Shown here in pieces: positions 35,283 through 47,273 of a DNA stretch of 64,000 nucleotides. Source of the stretch: Pyrococcus kukulkanii (GTDB taxonomy: Archaea; Methanobacteriota_B; Thermococci; Thermococcales; Thermococcaceae); contig NZ_CP010835.1 of NCBI RefSeq assembly GCF_001577775.1, forward strand, positions 620,001-684,000. The letters are read 5' to 3'. The position numbers and the translations under genes were made by a program. Below the pieces are notes generated by a model. It saw only the letters and a list, made by a program, of their open reading frames with translations, did not search any database and was not told where the DNA came from. Each line of letters opens with the position of its first letter. Positions within the stretch are counted from its first letter, which is position 1.

Positions 35283-35686
35283 TGAAGCTGAAGGGTAGGG
35301 GGATAGGAAAGGGTGTAGTTGAGGGAGTAGTAATAGTTTCAAGGAGGCCACTCTCATTTTTGGGTGGCGTTGATCCCGAAACTGGAATTATTACGGATGC
35401 CGAGAGCGACATAAAGGGGGAGAGTATAAAGGGAAAAATATTGGCCTTCCCCAGGGGTAAAGGGTCGACTGTCGGCTCTTATGTAATATACGCCCTAGCG
35501 AAGGGTGGTAATGGTCCAAAAGCATTAATCGTCGAGGATGCAGAGACGATAGTAACGGTTGGTGCGATAATCTCCGGGATACCCCTTGTAACTGGAATAG
35601 ACATTAAAAAGCTGAAGACGGGGATGAGGGTCAGGGTAAACGCCGAAACTGGGGAGGTGGAGATAATTGGCGAAGGGAATCTATGA
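35279..35686 (+). CDS. Phosphomevalonate dehydratase small subunit
   Basis: This 135-residue swivelling domain corresponds to the small subunit of aconitase X (DUF126). The loop PRGKGSTVGSYVIYALA (about 60-76), which holds the essential Ser in related proteins, is present, as is KALIVEDAETIVTVGAI. ATG overlaps the stop of the large subunit, so the two are made in step. The stop lies 20 bases inside the following zinc-ribbon/protease gene. Confidence 0.88.
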   Translation: MMKLKGRGIGKGVVEGVVIVSRRPLSFLGGVDPETGIITDAESDIKGESIKGKILAFPRGKGSTVGSYVIYALAKGGNGPKALIVEDAETIVTVGAIISGIPLVTGIDIKKLKTGMRVRVNAETGEVEIIGEGNL

Positions 35687-36886
35687 GTGCATACAGTGTG
35701 GTCACAGGGAAGTTAGGGACACAACTCAGCCTCTCCTTCCTGGAGCATGTCCCGTGTGTGGGGGAGATATGATACTTGTTGGCTATGAAGTGGAGATTGA
35801 AGAGGAGGAGAAACCCAGCATAGAGGAGGAGCTGCTAAAATACTATGAGTTAGGGCCTCTCCTTGAGAGAAGAGGAGAAGTCCTAGTATATGAAGTCATC
35901 TCGATAAAGGAGGAGAATTTTGAGAAGGTCATGAGGGAAATTGAGAAGCTTGGTTATTGGATAGCCCTAAAGAGAAGTAACGGAAAAATCTTACTCTACG
36001 TTTTTCCAGCTCAAAGAGTTGAGATGAGAGAAAATCCTCTTATTGGTGTCTTGTTATTTGTTCTTACTTTAATTAGCACATTTTTGCGGGTTATATCCTT
36101 TCCTTAAACTACATAAAGACCCTTGAGGATCTTGGCATCCCTGGGGTCAAAAACGTCTATCTAAATGCTTTGGCTTTCTCCGTTGGTATAATGGCGATCC
36201 TCGGAACTCATGAGATGGGGCACAAAATTGCAGCAACTATTCATGGTGTTAAGTCAACATTTCCTTATTTCATCCCATTTCCCTCCTTTATAGGAACCCT
36301 TGGGGCTGTGATAAGAGTTAAATCCCCAATACCAACGAGAAATGCGGCAATAGATTTAGGAGCAAGTGGGCCGATTGCTGGGTTACTGGTTGCTATCCCC
36401 GTGACGGTTGTGGGGCTCAAACTTTCTGCTATAGTTCCTATGGAGTACCTCAAGCAGGGCGAGACGGTATACTTTGGAACGAGCATATTGTTCTATGCAC
36501 TAACCAAGATGGTCTTGGGAAACCTTGGGAGTGATGTCGGAATAATACTTCATCCCTTAGCTATTGCAGGCTGGGTCGGGATACTTGTCACATTCCTTAA
36601 TTTGATTCCCGCGGCTCAACTTGATGGAGGACATATCGCCAGGGCTCTTCTTCCAGAAAAAGTTCATAGAGTCTTAACTTACGCCCTGGGATTCTTGGCG
36701 ATAGGCTTGAGCTATTTCTGGCCAGGGTGGTTCCTTTGGGGGATTCTAATACTTTTAATGGGTAGGGTTGGCAACCCTGGAGCTTTAGATGAGGTGACAC
36801 CCTTAACCTTAAGCAGAAAGATACTCGCCTTATTAGCAGCGGTTATCTTCATAGTCTCGGCTGTACCAGCACCATTTTCAAGCTGA
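35667..36886 (+). pseudogene. Site-2-protease family M50 gene, split by one-base frameshift
   Basis: Read in two frames this is one gene of about 406 codons. The first frame (35667-36107, TTG start with GGAGGTGG six bases before) gives a zinc ribbon (CIQCG...CPVCG) and a small domain, then enters the first membrane helix and breaks. The second frame continues from about 36086 with AGYILSLNYIKTLEDLGIPG and on to the protease core: HEMGH (zinc ligands, active Glu) and LDGGH (third ligand). One extra T in the run at 36081-36085 would restore a full protein. It may be a true mutation, a slip site, or a sequencing error. Confidence 0.8.
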
Positions 36887-36953
36887 CAGAAGCCTTTTAT
36901 TTTTTAACCGCCTACTTCAATAAAAAGCTTGATGCAAATAAGGAGGGGTATAG

Positions 36954-37673
36954 ATGAGAATAGAGATAAAACTACTTCCCCTTAAGGATAATGCTATACT
37001 GCCTTTTAATTACAATTATGAAGTGTACACACAAATAGTAGAAAAAGTTAGTTCAATAGAGCCAGGTTTGACGAAGATGCTGTCTTCTCCGCATGGATAT
37101 TGGACATTCTCAAGGATAATTGTTAGAAAGAGGCGGGTATTGCCTGAAAAGGGGATTGAGATATTATCGGATGATGTCTCTCTGTATGTATCATCTTATA
37201 ATGAGGAAATAATTAGGGCAATTGCAGAAGCCGTTGAAAAAAGTCCTGAGTTCAAAATAGGAGATGTAACGTTTCTTGTCGGGGATATAAAGGCAATAAG
37301 GGTTAAGGATATAGGGAGGGAGAATGTGTTCTCAACGTTGAGTCCAATAGTTGTGAGGACGGTAAAGTTTGAGAACGGAAAGCTTAGGCATTGGGATCTT
37401 TACCCTCATGATGATCTTTTTATGGATAGGCTCAGGAAGGTAATGTTCCTAAGGTATAATGAGATTATGGGTCACCTTCCAGAAGATAAAGAGTTCAAGA
37501 TAGAGGTGCTGAAGTTCAAACCTACAAGGTTGATGGTTGGTGATTCCTACATCAGGGGGTCGCTCATGGTGTTCAGGTACATTGGTTCAGAAGAGATAGC
37601 AAGATTTGGCTACGAAAATGGGTTTGGTGAAAAGACAAGGTTTGGCTTTGGCATGGTCAAGCTAATAGACTAA
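36954..37673 (+). CDS. cas6: Cas6-family protein, probably non-catalytic, orphan
   Basis: The C-terminal glycine-rich loop GYENGFGEKTRFGFGMVK (about 219-236) is the Cas6 signature, and the fold pattern fits two RAMP domains in 239 residues. Against the P. furiosus Cas6 sequence as I remember it, the catalytic Tyr31, His46 and Lys52 fall on Val29, Ser44 and Gly48, so cleavage by the known mechanism is unlikely. It resembles the Cas6 paralogues of Pyrococcus described as non-catalytic. No other cas gene or CRISPR array is in the window. GGAGGGG precedes the ATG. It ends 17 bases inside the convergent GT4 gene. Confidence 0.85.
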   Translation: MRIEIKLLPLKDNAILPFNYNYEVYTQIVEKVSSIEPGLTKMLSSPHGYWTFSRIIVRKRRVLPEKGIEILSDDVSLYVSSYNEEIIRAIAEAVEKSPEFKIGDVTFLVGDIKAIRVKDIGRENVFSTLSPIVVRTVKFENGKLRHWDLYPHDDLFMDRLRKVMFLRYNEIMGHLPEDKEFKIEVLKFKPTRLMVGDSYIRGSLMVFRYIGSEEIARFGYENGFGEKTRFGFGMVKLID

Positions 37674-38532
37674 GGCCAATAATCCCTAGGATTATTTCAA
37701 TTCCCCAAACGTAGAGGACGAGTTCCCACTCTTTTACCTTCTTTACTCTCATTATCAGGCCTAAAAATGAAAGATAGGGAGGGGGAGTTAGTGTTCCGTC
37801 CTCCCTAACTTTTGTCCTTCCAATTTGCTTTCCTTTAAACTTCACCCTTATTTTAAGCATAAAGTCAATCGCGTGAGGAATCAGCATTACAGCTAGGGGG
37901 AGCTCTAAATGGTTTTCAATAGCGATGAGAGCCATTAGAGCTCCAAGCGACAACGTTCCAGTATCTCCTGGAAAAACCTTTGCAGGATATTTGTTCCACC
38001 ATAAAAAACCAAGAGATGCTAAGAATGCTATCAAAGAAAGTTTGCTCCCTGACATTAAGTAAAGGAAGAAGAATATTATAGCTGAAGTACCAACTTCAAG
38101 CCCATTAAATCCGGCTAACATGTTAACTAAGTTAGCGGAGGCTATTGTATAAAGCCAGAACACTATTGGAGTTATTAGGCCAAGGTAAAGCTTAACTTCG
38201 CCTAGGGATACGTATTCCCTCTTAACCCAGAGCATTATCGGAAAAGTTGCCAAGGCGGATAGGATAACTTTATGTGACTGGGGTAGGTTACTCAAGTCAT
38301 CCAGGATACCAACCATGCTGACAAGTGCAAACACTATCAATATAAATCCTGGGCTTCTTGTGAGAAGCCCTACAAGGAGAATTGAGAATACTATGGCAAG
38401 TCCGCCCATCTCAGGAACGAAAACTTCATACGGCTTATGAACATCCCTACCCGCAATGCCTGCTTTCATCATAGCTTTAGCTATATAATGCGTGAGTATT
38501 AGGGAAAGGATTAATGATATTGCTTCAATCAC
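37657..38532 (-). CDS. MraY/WecA/Alg7-type sugar-1-phosphate transferase (GT4)
   Basis: This polytopic enzyme moves a sugar-1-phosphate, probably GlcNAc-1-P, from a UDP sugar to dolichyl phosphate, the first step of N-glycan assembly. About ten helices are seen in 291 residues. Family motifs are VHKPYEVFVPEMGG (about 31), GILDDLSNLPQSHK (about 75-88), the NMLAGFNGLE Asn-Asp-type loop (about 136) and FPGDTGTLSLGA (about 188-199). GTG start with GGAGG seven bases before, overlapping the HD gene stop by eight bases. Confidence 0.85.
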   Translation of the reverse strand: MIEAISLILSLILTHYIAKAMMKAGIAGRDVHKPYEVFVPEMGGLAIVFSILLVGLLTRSPGFILIVFALVSMVGILDDLSNLPQSHKVILSALATFPIMLWVKREYVSLGEVKLYLGLITPIVFWLYTIASANLVNMLAGFNGLEVGTSAIIFFFLYLMSGSKLSLIAFLASLGFLWWNKYPAKVFPGDTGTLSLGALMALIAIENHLELPLAVMLIPHAIDFMLKIRVKFKGKQIGRTKVREDGTLTPPPYLSFLGLIMRVKKVKEWELVLYVWGIEIILGIIGLSLLA

Positions 38533-40136: not shown

Positions 40137-43100
40137 ATGCGAGCAAAGATGCTTGTTTACGCGATTATAATATTGCTTGTGTTGTCAGCAATACCAATAG
40201 TTCCAACAACTGCAGAGACTACTTCTCTAAATACGCTAGTAACGTTTGGTGTAAAAAAGCTCAACGTTAATACAAAAGAACCAGAGCCCTGGGTTCCCCC
40301 GTTAGACAAAATAGAGCCGGAATTACTCAAGGAGCTCAAGAATGCTAGCACTGGACTAAATTTTGTTCTGGCCAAAGTCGTTTCCACAGATGAAATATCT
40401 AAAGAACTCAAGAAGATCGGGTTGGATGTTCTCGGAAAGAGCAAGATAGCTGGAGCATACGTGTACATAGTTAAACTACCAAGGAAGGAGAATACAGAGA
40501 AAAAACTCCTCAAAGCCGCTTCACTCAAGCAAGTAATGTTCATAGCTAGAACGAATCCAGTAAAACCAATTGGAACTTATTCTGAGCCTTCAGAGGAAAG
40601 CTTAAAGAAGATCCAAGTTCCAAAGTCCAAATATTCCTATAGGGTTGACCAGTGGAAAGAGGAAGTTACAAATAGAGAGATCAAGGGAATGCGCGTAGTC
40701 CTTTCTTCAGAGATAGTGCCGGACAAGTTAAAGCCAAAATCAGCATCAGAGCTCAAGATACAAGTGCCCGAAATAACGATGCCTGAACCAAACGATGTGT
40801 TCGCGGTTTCCCATCACAAGGCCACGAAAGTGTGGGATCTTGGAATAACTGGTGAAGGAATAAACGTTGCGGTAATAGATAGTGGTGTTGACTTCGGAAA
40901 TCCTGACTTACAAGATGCTTATGCCGTTGATATTAATCCAAATTCGCCCTACTATGGCTGGCCAATAGCATACGACGGTAACTCAATGCTAGCTTACTTA
41001 TTGTTCAACCTAACGTTCCCTGAGTATCTATTCTCTTGGTACACGAACGTTTCTGTAAGGTTGACTCCTGTGCCCTTCTATGGGTCAGTAGGCATTGGTT
41101 ACAAGGGTAACTATACAGTTGTCTTCACAACTATGAGCATGGCTAACATCGTAAGTGCAAAGGACAGAGCAGAAATAATGGTTGAGATATTTAGCTGGAT
41201 AGGAAATGTCAGTAAGGTTCTTCTCGTGGATGATGATGGTGGAGATGTATTTGAGGTATTTTACGAGGAGGCTCTGAAGGAGCTTGACATGAACTATACA
41301 ATTATTCACTGCAATGAGACCAAAGTGGAGCTAAGCAACTTAACGGGATATGACGTTGTTCTATGGTTCACTGGAGGTGCATATGACACAATATCTGAGG
41401 ATGATGTAAAACTCTGGGAAGAGTACCTTAACAATGGCGGAAAGCTTTGGCTTTCAAGTGTTGACTACCTCTATCAGCAGGGATTCAATAACTTCACACT
41501 TAATTACCTCCATGTAGTAAACGCGATAGAGGACTTACCAGCACCATCGATAGTTGTCACTTACGAGGGAACAAAATACTGGGTGAGCGAGGTTGGGAAT
41601 GGTGCCTTCGTGAGCCCAACGGACGTGTACGTTGATTACATAGTCCCAGATGGAAACGCAACTATACTGCTTACGGGATATCTAGCCCTGGCACATGACC
41701 TCGCCAGGAACGTAACATACATCGACATAAAGTTACCACTCACAGAGAACTTAACCGTACCAACTAAGAGCGGAGTGGTTAGATTAGGATTACATCCTGA
41801 CTTAGCTCTATGGTTTGACTGGGCGGGAGGATACGTACTACTTACAGATCCAAACGAAAGCGAAAAGTATGACACCATTTACGTCGATCTATTACCTTCA
41901 ACCGTTATAGACTTCAACAAAGATACCGGGCATACAAAGGACAACCCAGTCATACAGCTAGACTTCTGGGATGCATTCAAGGGATGGTTTGGATCTGATG
42001 GATACGCGGATCTATCTGGAGGACTGTTGTACTTCATAGCCGATGGTAAGACACCAATACCATATTCAAACATAACTGCCGCAAGATGGGGATTCCCACT
42101 AAGGATACCGGAGAGTGGGGAGCTGGTTGCCTTCATGATAGGTACCGTCTACACCGCTGGTGGAGACCATGGAACTTTATGTGCAGCCGCAGTTGCGGCA
42201 AGAGGAAGAACTTATTATGGAGACGAATACCTTGCAAACACATACGGAACCGCTATTGGAGCTAAGATCATAGCCGAGGGGTCTCTCTATCAGGGTGGTA
42301 TATGGGAGGACTACCTGTTCTTCGCCGTTGAGGGATACGATGGAGTTCCTGGAACTGGAGATGAAGCGTTGGTAGTTAGTAACAGTTACGGTAACTCTTA
42401 CGTCATTAACAAGGGATACAGGTACGCCGATAGATTCCTCTACTACCTGACGCACTACTACACTCCATGGGTTACGTTCCTCTTCGCTGCTGGAAACGGT
42501 GGGCCAGGATATGGGACCGTGACAAGCAGTGGCGCTTCACCGGGAGTAATAACCGTCGGAGCGGCAGTTGAGTTTGGATACAGAAACTTGTACGGATACG
42601 ATGAGGGACCATTAGGATTCTCTAAGGCAAACTATGGTGACGTCGCTCCATTCTCAAACAGAGGTCCAAATGCCTTAGGTCAGGTAGATCCAGACGTTCT
42701 TGCAGTGGGAATGTTTGCCGCTGGAAGCTTACCAGTTAACTCAATAGGAAACGGTGTGTTTGCGTCAGATCTGTGGTCAGGTACTAGCCTGGCAACTCCA
42801 ATGGCTGCTGGAATAACGGCATTAGTATACCAGGCCTTCTATGAGGCCCACAGAAGATGGCCAACGTTTGAGGAGGTAAGAACGATACTAATGAACACTG
42901 CAGATGATGTAAGTCATGATGTATTTAGCCAAGGTGCTGGATTCCTAAATGCTTACAGGGCAGTGAAGTTGGCCCTTGACGAGGATGGACTCTTCGTGTA
43001 TCCACCAATGTGGCAGGCAGGCGAGACCCAGTATCCAGCGTTTGCTAATGTAATGTATCCTGGGGAGACCGCTGAGAAGACCTTCATGATAACGAATGTC

Positions 43101-46100
43101 AACAAGACCTCGGATAAGAACGTAACCATTTCAGCAGAAGTGTTCGAGAAAATCGGTGAATACGTGTTTGAAGTGAACTCAAGCATGCTTGGAGAGATGA
43201 TAAGGATTGACCAATACATGCCAAATGACACCGAACTACTGAAGGTCACTGTCTACACACCATATGAGTACTTCATAAGTGGTCCAGGCTTCTTATACGC
43301 GGAGCTCTTTGCGTGGACAGATGTAAACGGAAACGGCACGGTTGAAGTGCCAGATGAAGTTAACAGGTTACAAGCAGATGTCAGAGCTGGAACATCACTA
43401 GCACTCACTCTCGGAGACCCATGGAGCAAGTTCACGGATGGGTTACTCTTTAGGCTGAGGTTCGGTGGTGAAGTTAACTACGTCAAGCTTGAGTTCTATA
43501 AGAGAGTTCCATGGTTCTGGGTTGAAGTTCCAAGCAACGTAGTCGTGCCAGCCAACGGAACTACCACAATCACGGCCACACTTACTGTACCTGAAAATGC
43601 AAGCCTTGGAATATATGAGGGAGCAATTTACCTTGACTATAATGGAACTAGAACAACAATACCAGTGAGTGTTGTTGTAGCATCAAAAGAACCTAAGTTC
43701 ACATTTGGAGGTAAAACAAACGCTACAGGCCTCTACGACAACAGTAACATCTACGGCTACTTCGACTGGTGGTGGAGGTATGAGACTGGAGACTGGAGGC
43801 TGTTCTACTTCAACGTCTCCGACAACATAAGCACGGAGGACAAGTACATAGTTGTCGATCTCAACTGGACTGGAACCTATCCAACGGATATAAACCTCCA
43901 CGTTATAGGTCCAGAAGTTGATGACTGGAGCTTAATAGCTCCATCAGTCTTTGGCCCGTACACCCTGGTTGAGTATGCGAGAAGCGATGATGGCTACATT
44001 GACGCGGGACAATTTGTATTCAAGACGACAAGTGGCGAGATGAGAGAGGTAATATCATCCAAGATATCAAACGGACTACATGCAATATGGCTCCACAACG
44101 TGCTATTTGATGGAAACTCAAGCTATAGAACGTTCTCAGGTAGGGTAAGCATTGTCAAAGTATGGCCAAAGGATATCACGGAAATAACCAACAACCTCAC
44201 AGGAAAATTCAACGTAGACTTTGAGAGAGAGTATGACTTTGGAACCTTAACAACGCTCACGTATGGTCTAATAGTTCCAACTAGATACATTCACCAGCTT
44301 GCTCCACTAAGGGGTGAATCTAAGTACTACATCGTAAACGTCACCAATTCAGGACAACTTGATGTTGTGCTAACGAGTATCTACGATGACTTGGCGGGAC
44401 TGGATCTTGACCTATACGTATACTACTACGTCAATGGTCAAATGACCCTTATGGGCTCATCTGGAAGTCCAACCGCAGACGAGAGAGTCACGATAAACTT
44501 CCCATACCCAGGAACGTACATAATTGAGGTTTACTCATATGACAATCCAGCCCCAGGAGAAACGTACTACGACCTTTACATCTACAACTACGAAGCTAAG
44601 AACAACCTCTGGGCTAACACCACGGAATATGAAGAGAACAAGTATAACATAACCCTTAGCTACGATCTTAGAGCCGAAGAAAACAGGGACTACCTAGAGG
44701 CTACCATAACTGGATTCCTTGGAAAACTGTTCATAGGGTCACCTGCATCCCCAACCCTAATCCAAGTGCCAATAAAGATAATACCGTCCAATGAGACACT
44801 CACCGACATATACGTCTACGCGATGAACATAAGCCCAGAGCTAATAGAGGTAGGAGGCACTGCCAACATATCATTCATTATAATAAACATGGGACAGAGA
44901 CCGGGGTACACCACAAAGGTAAGCCTTCTGGACGGTAAAGGAAATGTACTAGCCCAGAGTGTTATCCCGGTATTCGAGCCGGGTGCCGTCTATGAGGCAT
45001 ACTTCGTTGTTGAGATAAACAACCCAGATCTAGAATACTATAAGCTCGTTGTCACAGCAACCAACGATGGATTCCCAGAGAACAACGAGATGACGTTTGG
45101 AATCAGGGGAGTTTCACCAGACTTCCTAATGAACGAGGGTAACGTTGATGTGCAGTATGTATATCCACGCGAGGATGAGCTCTCAGGCTATGGAGAGGTG
45201 GCCAGAGTAGATCCAGAAGTAACTGATGAGGGAGGCACTTATGGAGTAAGCCTAAACTTGAGAGGGATTGGAACGGTAGTAATGGTTCTACCTGAGGCCG
45301 CGGAGGATATTAAGGTTACGGACTTCCACGAAATCACAATGCTAACTGACATAGTATTCAACCCATTCGACGACAGGGCACTTGGCAAGAAGAACGCAAC
45401 GTCGTACGTGATCACCGTTAACGGAACTCCGAAGTTCAACCCATTCGCAATTCCAGAGGTAAGAAGGGCAATCCAGAAGCTAATAGACAGGGACTATGTG
45501 ATCAACGAGATATTCAACTCAACAGCACTTCCACTGTATGGAGCAATCAGCTCATGGAGCAAGCTCTACGAGCAGTTCTTGAACGTCTATGAGGTTGCAG
45601 GAGTCATGGAGTATAACGAGAAAGAGGCCCTCAAAGAAATCAATGAAGCACTCGAGAAGGCTAGTGTAGAGCTGGCCAAGTACAACTATACCCTTGAGAA
45701 GATTAATGGAACGTGGTACTTCAACGGAGAACCAGTTACTATAGTCGGAATAGGAGTGAGTGAGGACGAGAGGAAAGATATTGCTGAATACGTCGCCGAG
45801 TTACTCGAGGAGGCAGGATTCAAGGTTGAACTCGAAGTAGTCGACAGGAGAACTGCATCCGCAATGGTCTACACGAATGTAGACAACGCGACAACGGACT
45901 TCAAGTGGGCCTTCTACACCGAGGGATGGGTACCAAGCTTCACAACCGAGAGCAACCTTGATGTACGCACTGTCCAATACTACACACCACTATGGTTCTA
46001 TCCAGGATTTACCCCACTCTATCCGACGAACTTAGCTGTGAAAGACGGCATAGAGAGCCTAGGAGGGTACAACGAGACGATAGAGAAGCTAAGATTATAC

Positions 46101-47273
46101 TACTACAACACTCCAGAGAAGCTAATGGAGATAGAGAACATGACATTGGAGGAGCTTGGTAGGATGCTACTGAATGACATAGAGGACACCAACCAGCTCT
46201 TAGACTTGAGCAAGCTCGCGATGTACCTAGGATATATGGATGGTTTAAGGGTGTTCCTAGCATTAGATTACAACAATGATAACTCAACACTTCTTGGATA
46301 CAAGGTCATTGATTATGAGGGCAAGAAGCTACTCCTCATGCACTTCAACGGAACTGGAGGAGTAAGGTTCACAGTAAGCTACAAGATCCACAGGGAGCAA
46401 TACGAAGAGGAGGCCATTGAAGGAGTAGAGCAGGTTGAAGAAACAATAGACAAGGTTGTCGAAACCGCACAGGAAGTCCTTGAGAAGCTTGAGAACATAA
46501 CCACAGGAACGGAGAGCGTTGAAGAGCTCTTCGAGACGCTAGAAAATATCTCAGAGGAGAATCCAGAGGTGATAGAAGAGATAGCGGAGCAACTCAACAT
46601 GAGCCCAGAGGAGGTTCATGACTTAATTGAGGACACCCACGTGGAGGAAGTCGAGGGGGGAACTGCATTAATGATGATAGCTAGCGAAATCAATGGAAAT
46701 GCAAAGATAGTGAAGAATGAGACTGAGGTACAAGTCACGGCGAAGAAGGAGGGAGTTGAAGACGTTAAGAAGGCTACCGCAGAGATTGTGGTCGATGGAG
46801 ACCACGGAATGGTAGTTACTGTAGCAATTAAGCTACCGCTAGACATTCAGGAGTACGAGGTCAACGTCAAGGATGCGGACCTTCTCAGAACGCAACTAAT
46901 CAAGAAGGAGAGGTACTCACTACTCCTCGTCACATTGAGGCTGCACTCACCAGCGGAGATAACGGTCGAGGCATATGAAGTTAAGAAGCCACCAATGGTC
47001 CTAGTCTACAGCTATTACTACGTTGTCGGCTACAAGATATTAAGCCAAGACTTCGAGAAGTACTACAATATTGCACAAGAAGCAGGTGTTAGCTCGGAGG
47101 TTCTACAGGAAGCTATGGAGCTCAAGAAGGTTGCAGAGGAGAACTACAAGAAGGCGGTAGAGCTAGGAATACTAGTTAACTATGGTAATCCATATGCATT
47201 CCCATACATCAGGGAGGCATACATCAACCTACTGAAGGCCATTGACATACTAAAGAACGCCCTTGAATCTTGA
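40137..47273 (+). CDS. Giant secreted subtilase (S8) with solute-binding-protein-like C-terminal domain
   Basis: 2378 residues, the largest gene here. Signal peptide 1-27, propeptide to about 225, then the subtilisin triad: Asp248 (VAVIDSGVD), His678 (GGDHGTLCA) and Ser884 (SGTSLATPMAAG), with the oxyanion Asn in AAGNGGPGYG. Some 430 residues separate Asp and His; that insert contains a flavodoxin/amidotransferase-like segment at about 355-460 (KVLLVDDDGGDV, VVLWFTGG). Beta-rich domains rich in sequons follow. Residues about 1740-2045 (PEVRRAIQKLIDRDYVI, EYVAELLEEAGFKVELEVV) match the second half of a family 5 oligopeptide-binding protein. An acidic coiled coil and a helical end close the protein. 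Pyrolysin-like, cell surface. Confidence 0.92.
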   Translation: MRAKMLVYAIIILLVLSAIPIVPTTAETTSLNTLVTFGVKKLNVNTKEPEPWVPPLDKIEPELLKELKNASTGLNFVLAKVVSTDEISKELKKIGLDVLGKSKIAGAYVYIVKLPRKENTEKKLLKAASLKQVMFIARTNPVKPIGTYSEPSEESLKKIQVPKSKYSYRVDQWKEEVTNREIKGMRVVLSSEIVPDKLKPKSASELKIQVPEITMPEPNDVFAVSHHKATKVWDLGITGEGINVAVIDSGVDFGNPDLQDAYAVDINPNSPYYGWPIAYDGNSMLAYLLFNLTFPEYLFSWYTNVSVRLTPVPFYGSVGIGYKGNYTVVFTTMSMANIVSAKDRAEIMVEIFSWIGNVSKVLLVDDDGGDVFEVFYEEALKELDMNYTIIHCNETKVELSNLTGYDVVLWFTGGAYDTISEDDVKLWEEYLNNGGKLWLSSVDYLYQQGFNNFTLNYLHVVNAIEDLPAPSIVVTYEGTKYWVSEVGNGAFVSPTDVYVDYIVPDGNATILLTGYLALAHDLARNVTYIDIKLPLTENLTVPTKSGVVRLGLHPDLALWFDWAGGYVLLTDPNESEKYDTIYVDLLPSTVIDFNKDTGHTKDNPVIQLDFWDAFKGWFGSDGYADLSGGLLYFIADGKTPIPYSNITAARWGFPLRIPESGELVAFMIGTVYTAGGDHGTLCAAAVAARGRTYYGDEYLANTYGTAIGAKIIAEGSLYQGGIWEDYLFFAVEGYDGVPGTGDEALVVSNSYGNSYVINKGYRYADRFLYYLTHYYTPWVTFLFAAGNGGPGYGTVTSSGASPGVITVGAAVEFGYRNLYGYDEGPLGFSKANYGDVAPFSNRGPNALGQVDPDVLAVGMFAAGSLPVNSIGNGVFASDLWSGTSLATPMAAGITALVYQAFYEAHRRWPTFEEVRTILMNTADDVSHDVFSQGAGFLNAYRAVKLALDEDGLFVYPPMWQAGETQYPAFANVMYPGETAEKTFMITNVNKTSDKNVTISAEVFEKIGEYVFEVNSSMLGEMIRIDQYMPNDTELLKVTVYTPYEYFISGPGFLYAELFAWTDVNGNGTVEVPDEVNRLQADVRAGTSLALTLGDPWSKFTDGLLFRLRFGGEVNYVKLEFYKRVPWFWVEVPSNVVVPANGTTTITATLTVPENASLGIYEGAIYLDYNGTRTTIPVSVVVASKEPKFTFGGKTNATGLYDNSNIYGYFDWWWRYETGDWRLFYFNVSDNISTEDKYIVVDLNWTGTYPTDINLHVIGPEVDDWSLIAPSVFGPYTLVEYARSDDGYIDAGQFVFKTTSGEMREVISSKISNGLHAIWLHNVLFDGNSSYRTFSGRVSIVKVWPKDITEITNNLTGKFNVDFEREYDFGTLTTLTYGLIVPTRYIHQLAPLRGESKYYIVNVTNSGQLDVVLTSIYDDLAGLDLDLYVYYYVNGQMTLMGSSGSPTADERVTINFPYPGTYIIEVYSYDNPAPGETYYDLYIYNYEAKNNLWANTTEYEENKYNITLSYDLRAEENRDYLEATITGFLGKLFIGSPASPTLIQVPIKIIPSNETLTDIYVYAMNISPELIEVGGTANISFIIINMGQRPGYTTKVSLLDGKGNVLAQSVIPVFEPGAVYEAYFVVEINNPDLEYYKLVVTATNDGFPENNEMTFGIRGVSPDFLMNEGNVDVQYVYPREDELSGYGEVARVDPEVTDEGGTYGVSLNLRGIGTVVMVLPEAAEDIKVTDFHEITMLTDIVFNPFDDRALGKKNATSYVITVNGTPKFNPFAIPEVRRAIQKLIDRDYVINEIFNSTALPLYGAISSWSKLYEQFLNVYEVAGVMEYNEKEALKEINEALEKASVELAKYNYTLEKINGTWYFNGEPVTIVGIGVSEDERKDIAEYVAELLEEAGFKVELEVVDRRTASAMVYTNVDNATTDFKWAFYTEGWVPSFTTESNLDVRTVQYYTPLWFYPGFTPLYPTNLAVKDGIESLGGYNETIEKLRLYYYNTPEKLMEIENMTLEELGRMLLNDIEDTNQLLDLSKLAMYLGYMDGLRVFLALDYNNDNSTLLGYKVIDYEGKKLLLMHFNGTGGVRFTVSYKIHREQYEEEAIEGVEQVEETIDKVVETAQEVLEKLENITTGTESVEELFETLENISEENPEVIEEIAEQLNMSPEEVHDLIEDTHVEEVEGGTALMMIASEINGNAKIVKNETEVQVTAKKEGVEDVKKATAEIVVDGDHGMVVTVAIKLPLDIQEYEVNVKDADLLRTQLIKKERYSLLLVTLRLHSPAEITVEAYEVKKPPMVLVYSYYYVVGYKILSQDFEKYYNIAQEAGVSSEVLQEAMELKKVAEENYKKAVELGILVNYGNPYAFPYIREAYINLLKAIDILKNALES

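What the first reader, a model, noticed from the sequence alone, without database searches (positions are those of the whole stretch)
36954..37673. Orphan Cas6 lacking the known catalytic residues
The glycine-rich loop is clear, but positions that align with Tyr31, His46 and Lys52 of P. furiosus Cas6 are Val, Ser and Gly. There is no array or other cas gene within the window. It sits after a site-2 protease and before glycan genes. It could be an RNA-binding protein with a new role, or a non-cleaving helper of a distant CRISPR locus.
Basis: partly seen in the sequence, partly recalled or inferred. Interest (0 to 1): 0.55.

Follow-up and report, generated by a model that had tools for sequence, protein, structure and literature searches.

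The report
Core non-cutting Cas6 of Thermococcaceae archaea
This gene encodes a known type of CRISPR RNA-cutting protein that has lost its cutting residues, and nearly all heat-loving archaea of its family keep it, even some in which no other CRISPR protein gene was found, so it probably now does another RNA-binding job.

Summary
Window 36954-37673 encodes a 239-aa Cas6 with the glycine-rich loop intact and the Tyr/His/Lys triad replaced by Val29/Ser44/Gly48. It is not a new protein: it is the ortholog of crystallised non-catalytic Cas6 proteins of Pyrococcus horikoshii (PH0350) and P. furiosus (3UFC). One intact ortholog lies in 89 of 94 Thermococcaceae genomes, a 90th is broken, and four drafts lack it. 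The orthologs form one clade and all 89 lack the triad. Twenty-three positions are fixed in them but rare in the other Cas6 aligned. The gene is under purifying selection. Five genomes at least 95% complete gave no match for Cas1, Cas7/DevR, Cas10-palm2, RAMPs or another Cas6, yet keep it intact; all five still hold 1-10 repeat-core matches, and four are multi-contig drafts. The best reading is a Cas6 turned into a non-cleaving single-stranded-RNA-binding protein with a host role not strictly tied to CRISPR. The RNA target is unknown. A CRISPR helper role, or cleavage by an atypical basic site, is not excluded. One genome has a broken copy, so it is not universally essential.

The parts
36954..37673 (+). 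Non-catalytic Cas6 (Cas6nc), 239 aa; triad positions are V29, S44, G48; G-loop GFGEKTRFGFGMVK at residues 223-236
36942..36948 (+). Shine-Dalgarno-like GGAGGGG, separated from the ATG by 5 nt; an SD-like motif is present in 88 of 89 orthologs
36895..36907 (+). TATA-like TTTTATTTTTTAA, candidate own promoter (inferred)
   Evidence: a BRE/TATA-like motif is found in 79 of 89 orthologs, but the regular expression misses all 9 genus-g1 members, this one included, and L044
36170..36886 (+). Neighbour: site-2 protease (M50) C-terminal part; found beside the gene only in the 9 genus-g1 loci
37657..38532 (-). Neighbour: convergent glycosyltransferase family 4 (MraY/WecA-like), 17-bp 3' overlap; convergent GT4 in 78 of 89 ortholog loci

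Best explanation
Cas6nc is a catalytic Cas6 that was duplicated or recruited once on the stem of the family Thermococcaceae, lost the Tyr/His/Lys triad, left the cas operons and became a core gene. Shown here: one clade, loss of the triad, retention, purifying selection, distance from listed cas loci. Reported by others for the P. [quoted passage not shown] Inferred: in the cell it binds single-stranded RNA the same way, aided by its own fixed basic and aromatic residues (R54, R58, R135, K162, W147, Y150), and acts as an RNA chaperone or regulator of a host RNA rather than as a crRNA maturase. The target is unknown.
For: One intact full-length ortholog (55-100% identity) in 89 of 94 Thermococcaceae genomes, and in 69 of the 70 with listed completeness of 95% or more. 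The 4 absences fall in the 24 genomes below 95%, where 4.9 absences are expected from incompleteness. For comparison: Cas1 72/94, DevR/Cas7 70/94, Cas10-palm2 36/94, RAMPs 35/94. Triad: 0 of 89 orthologs keep Tyr, His or Lys, against Y 33/34, H 34/34, K 33/34 in the other Cas6 aligned. 73 columns are at least 97% conserved in the orthologs; 34 of these are shared with at least 90% of the other Cas6 and 23 with at most 10%. dN/dS median 0.068 over 264 pairs with dS 0.1-1.2. The orthologs form one group at 100/100, and genera g1, g2, g4 and g5 each group together. Five genomes (G019, G038, G057, G079, G090) have no match for Cas1, DevR, Cas10-palm2, RAMPs or the III-A-type Cas6, and their only TIGR01877 match is this gene. 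In four of these five the tip branch is no longer than that of the nearest relative drawn beside it. In 32 genomes whose coordinates I copied, the nearest listed cas match is at least 28.7 kb away.
Against: All 74 good-quality genomes hold at least one exact match to the repeat core, and the five cas-poor genomes hold 1-10, so no CRISPR-free case exists among them. Only G019 of the five is a single contig; the others are 30-70-contig drafts in which arrays and cas loci can be lost in assembly. The genome search missed a Cas6 in G030, so absences are not proof. The exception to the tip-branch comparison is G057 (0.045 against 0.016). G025 has the gene broken in two, so it is dispensable there if the assembly is right. 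Cas6nc is not more conserved than the catalytic Cas6: median identity 62.5 against 66.5% over 406 genome pairs, higher in only 140. Its net charge is lower (median +1 against +10.5), which does not favour stronger RNA binding. K31 replaces an Arg of most catalytic copies, so it is not a gained charge.
Confidence: 0.5

Rival explanations
1. It is still a CRISPR component: a non-cleaving repeat-binding protein that protects, delivers or titrates pre-crRNA/crRNA beside the catalytic Cas6, and survives in cas-poor genomes because cas loss there is recent or remnant arrays are still used.
For: The P. horikoshii ortholog binds repeat RNA like PfuCas6 (PMC3727216, section 6 read). Repeat-core matches in 89 of 94 genomes. 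G079 and G090 are close to their nearest relatives (dS 0.17 and 0.29), so their cas loss, if real, is recent.
Against: Intact in five genomes with no other cas family found; G038 and G079 have one repeat-core match each in the whole genome, the one in G038 in a degenerate repeat. Not near listed cas matches: at least 28.7 kb in 32 genomes compared; neighbours are PAN, GT4 or M50 in most loci. The own genome already has a Cas6 with the triad intact (L001).
Confidence: 0.33
2. It cleaves RNA by an atypical active site made of fixed basic residues (R54, R58, K162), as reported for S. solfataricus Cas6 paralogs that lack general acid and base, on a host or CRISPR substrate.
For: R54, R58 and K162 are invariant in 89 of 89, while the other Cas6 mostly have L, E and E. 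PMC3727216 states that two active Sso Cas6 lack acid and base and use positive residues.
Against: The P. horikoshii ortholog is called inactive and the P. furiosus one non-catalytic in the papers read. His47 is in only 63 of 89 orthologs, so it is not a displaced invariant catalytic His. The spatial position of R54, R58 and K162 was not checked on a structure here.
Confidence: 0.1
3. A decaying paralog with no function.
For: Active site lost; broken in G025.
Against: 55 invariant columns in 89 orthologs, median dN/dS 0.068, SD-like and promoter-like motifs kept.
Confidence: 0.02

Closest known systems
P. horikoshii PH0350 (PDB 3QJJ, 3QJL, 3QJP), recalled to be the protein called PhCas6nc
   Same: Ortholog, full-length match, E = 3.8e-135; same residues at the triad positions apart from conservative changes nearby. 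PhCas6nc is described as inactive and RNA-binding (PMC3727216)
   Different: No functional difference identified; scattered substitutions (Leu for Val at position 29 in PH0350). That PH0350 is PhCas6nc is recalled, not stated in the passages read
P. furiosus Cas6 paralog (PDB 3UFC, PfuCas6nc)
   Same: Ortholog, E = 6.1e-124; named non-catalytic PfuCas6nc with this PDB code in PMC3652601 (passage read)
   Different: None identified
Catalytic P. furiosus Cas6 (3PKM, 3I4H; PF1131, locus tag recalled)
   Same: Same family, G-loop and shared conserved residues
   Different: Tyr31, His46 and Lys52 lost; 23 positions fixed here that are rare in the other Cas6; not in a cas operon
Cas6 of a type I-B locus in class relative G114 (L189)
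   Same: Joins the Cas6nc clade as its nearest outside row (99/93)
   Different: Tyr, His and Lys present in the alignment, next to Cas8b, Cas7b and Cas5: an ordinary cas6

Membership tests
Cas6 (RAMP) family by sequence | Profile match over the curated cut-off and C-terminal glycine-rich loop | tested here: met
   TIGR01877 158 bits against 58.65; Pfam; the loop glycines and F224, K227, T228, F232, M234, K236 are invariant in 89 of 89
Catalytic PF1131-type Cas6 | Tyr31/His46/Lys52 triad | tested here: not met
   V29/S44/G48 here; 0 of 89 orthologs keep any of the three
Catalytic PF1131-type Cas6 | Location in or near a cas operon or array | tested here: not met
   No cas match or repeat core in the window; nearest other Cas6 about 59 kb away
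Cas6 endoribonuclease (function) | Cleaves repeat RNA | not testable with these tools
   P. horikoshii non-catalytic Cas6 reported inactive (PMC3727216)
Pyrococcus non-catalytic Cas6 (Cas6nc) | Orthology to PH0350 and 3UFC | tested here: met
   one clade of genome copies in the tree. The PDB sequences themselves were not put in the tree
Pyrococcus non-catalytic Cas6 (Cas6nc) | Binds single-stranded repeat RNA in the inter-domain cleft | not testable with these tools
   Known for PhCas6nc from PMC3727216, section 6

The most novel reading that the evidence does not exclude
Cas6nc is a domesticated Cas6: a core RNA-binding protein of Thermococcaceae, recruited once from a CRISPR maturase on the family's stem, with a host RNA target and no requirement for CRISPR. 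If so, it would be a Cas protein taken over by the host as a housekeeping or regulatory RNA chaperone.
Probability: 0.45. Interest if true: 0.68.

Novelty: new member of a known kind. Interest (0 to 1): 0.42.

Why it matters
The two crystallised Pyrococcus proteins turn out to belong to a family-wide gene, apparently inherited vertically, that is kept more steadily than any of the cas families tested here. That makes a concrete question testable in genetically tractable Thermococcus: what RNA does a Cas6 without its nuclease triad hold, and can a CRISPR protein become a host RNA-binding factor?

Tried and rejected
Displaced catalytic His47: rejected, His in only 63 of 89 orthologs. A repeat-like NCAATAA box before the ATG as an autoregulatory site: present in 7 of 89, five of them g1 relatives; not pursued. 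Solitary repeats in cas-poor genomes as a conserved regulatory element: the sequences printed look like remnant arrays. Functional link to the M50 protease or GT4: the protease is a neighbour in 9 loci, all g1; the other configurations are PAN divergent (54), PAN downstream (8) or neither (18). G030 as a genome that relies on Cas6nc alone: rejected, it has its own Cas6 beside Cas10. Relatives outside the family: 6 of 21 class genomes match, best G114, an ordinary I-B cas6. PF10040 gave no match in the own genome. Structure prediction was not run, because crystal structures of orthologs exist. The named-genome scan gave 25 loci, 23 of them Thermococci-type MAGs, and was not used for counts. Literature: ten searches. 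Listings, plus passages of nine papers opened (PMC3652601, PMC3727216, PMC5823998, PMC4945791, PMC12934983, PMC4158269, PMC3124441, PMC8866350, PMC5965380), showed nothing on family-wide conservation of Cas6nc; most listed papers were not opened, and the library lacks most subscription papers. The PhCas6nc structure paper (PMC3375441) is not held.

Full report
What is there. Window 36954-37673 (+) is an ATG ORF of 239 aa that belongs to Cas6 by TIGR01877, Pfam and PADLOC models. The window is G000:C1:620001-684000 of a 1,977,126-bp single-contig genome. Against solved structures the best matches are the P. horikoshii protein PH0350 (3QJP, 3QJJ, 3QJL; E about 4e-135) and a P. furiosus protein (3UFC; E = 6e-124); the catalytic P. 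furiosus Cas6 (3PKM, 3I4H) is far weaker at about 3e-21. The window holds no repeat core and no other match to five cas families. The genome has three more Cas6 genes over the cut-off, of which L001 has the triad intact, plus Cas1, DevR/Cas7, Cas10 and RAMP matches and 86 repeat-core matches.

It is known. Non-catalytic Cas6 of P. furiosus and P. horikoshii are named in two open papers. [quoted passage not shown] That PhCas6nc is PH0350 is recalled. The primary structure papers (Wang 2012, Park 2012) were seen only as references; PMC3375441 is not held.

Distribution. A protein search of the 94 Thermococcaceae genomes held found one full-length ortholog in 89, at 55-100% identity. G025 has two pieces in opposite directions about 23 kb apart. 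G053, G058, G088 and G091 have none; their listed completeness is 53, 90, 75 and 80%. The 24 genomes below 95% completeness should lack it in 4.9 cases by incompleteness alone; 4 were seen. Of the 70 genomes at 95% or more, 69 have an intact copy and the 70th is G025. The same 94 genomes have Cas1 in 72, DevR/Cas7 in 70, Cas10-palm2 in 36, RAMPs in 35 and a III-A-type Cas6 in 34.

Decoupling from cas genes. Five genomes at 95% or more (G019, G038, G057, G079, G090) match none of Cas1, DevR, Cas10-palm2, RAMPs and the III-A-type Cas6, and their only TIGR01877 match is this gene. Four lower-quality drafts (G051, G061, G064, G085) show the same. G019 is one contig; the other four of the five are 30-70 contigs. 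The repeat core is still found 6, 1, 10, 1 and 5 times in G019, G038, G057, G079 and G090. The single match in G038 lies in a degenerate repeat; the one in G079 is a full repeat without a second match. The pattern covers one repeat class only. A caution: the whole-genome search overlooked a Cas6 in G030, so absences rest on several families together, not on one.

Sequence evidence. In the 89-row alignment 55 columns are invariant. Position 29 is L, V, I or M, never Tyr; position 44 is mostly E, Q or S, never His; the Lys column is D or G. In 34 other Cas6 rows Tyr is kept in 33, His in 34 and Lys in 33; the exception is L004 of the own genome. Of 73 columns at least 97% conserved in the orthologs, 34 are shared with at least 90% of the other rows, among them most of the G-loop, and 23 with at most 10%, among them K31, R54, R58, R135, K162, W147, Y150, S203, Y209 and T228. 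K31 stands where most of the others have Arg. This is change with new constraint, not decay. dN/dS has a median of 0.068 over 264 pairs with dS 0.1-1.2, the highest being 0.32. Against a special status, Cas6nc is not more conserved than catalytic Cas6: median identity 62.5 against 66.5% over 406 pairs of 29 genomes, higher in 140; and its net charge is lower.

History. The tree of 123 rows puts all 89 orthologs on one side of a branch at 100/100 with a long stem of 2.94; genera g1, g2, g4 and g5 each hold together, g3 does not because g1 lies within it, and g6 has one row. This fits vertical descent; no species tree was built for comparison. The nearest outside row is G114, whose cas6 keeps Tyr, His and Lys in the alignment and lies beside Cas8b, Cas7b and Cas5, so the ancestor was most likely an ordinary catalytic cas6. 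The root is a midpoint and some rows are long, so the sister relation is less sure than the clade. In four of the five cas-poor genomes the tip branch is no longer than that of the nearest relative drawn beside it (G019 0.05 against 0.081; G038 0.027 against 0.033 and 0.044 plus their shared 0.081; G079 0 against 0.0053; G090 0 against 0.022); G057 is the exception (0.045 against 0.016).

Context. A convergent GT4 gene follows in 78 of 89 loci; the upstream side is a divergent PAN proteasome ATPase in 54 and the M50 protease in 9, all genus g1. PAN was recognised by me from its N-terminus; its family was not searched. In 32 genomes compared the nearest listed cas match is 28.7 kb away or more. 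The gene therefore stands alone. A BRE/TATA-like motif is found before the ATG in 79 of 89, starting 55-63 nt upstream in 66 of them (about 0.007 expected per 70 nt, though relatedness inflates the count), and an SD-like motif in 88 of 89.

Verdict. Known kind, ortholog of the crystallised non-catalytic Cas6. The most likely mechanism is binding of single-stranded RNA without cleavage for a host function; the RNA-binding mode is reported for the ortholog by others, the host role and target are inferred. A CRISPR accessory role is the main rival, because repeats persist nearly everywhere. Cleavage by the fixed basic residues, as in some Sulfolobus Cas6, cannot be excluded from sequence.

Noticed in passing
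window 35667-36886: The zinc-ribbon/site-2 protease gene before cas6nc is split by a frame change (frame 0 to frame 2) around 36090; in relative L131 it is one open frame of 406 aa. Frameshift or sequencing error.
   Followed up: partly
L124 and L125 (G025:C1 1235386-1235667 and 1258628-1259065): Break of the cas6nc gene after about residue 145 by a rearrangement in a single-contig genome; its length equals that recalled for T. onnurineus NA1.
   Followed up: partly
Upstream of cas6nc in L045-L123 (79 loci): Conserved promoter-like motif, typically CGAAATTCTTATTAAC, before the gene, kept although the upstream neighbour changes (the regular expression used was looser).
   Followed up: partly
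L192 11261-11983: Divergent Cas6 beside Cas10 in G030 that the TIGR01877 whole-genome search did not list.
   Followed up: yes
L126 7349-8470 (own genome, G000:C1 about 1229348-1230469): A 373-aa ORF whose first part matches Cas10 (residues 7-248) and whose end matches Csx1/Csm6 HEPN (about 243-353), between a Cas6 and Cas8b/Cas7b: looks like a type III-A locus collapsed by deletion beside a I-B locus.
   Followed up: partly
L004 (G000:C1:716432-717070): Another Cas6 of the own genome with Ile at the Tyr position and Val at the Lys position but His kept.
   Followed up: no
window 40137-47273: Single 2378-aa ORF, a pyrolysin-like secreted serine protease by recalled resemblance.
   Followed up: no
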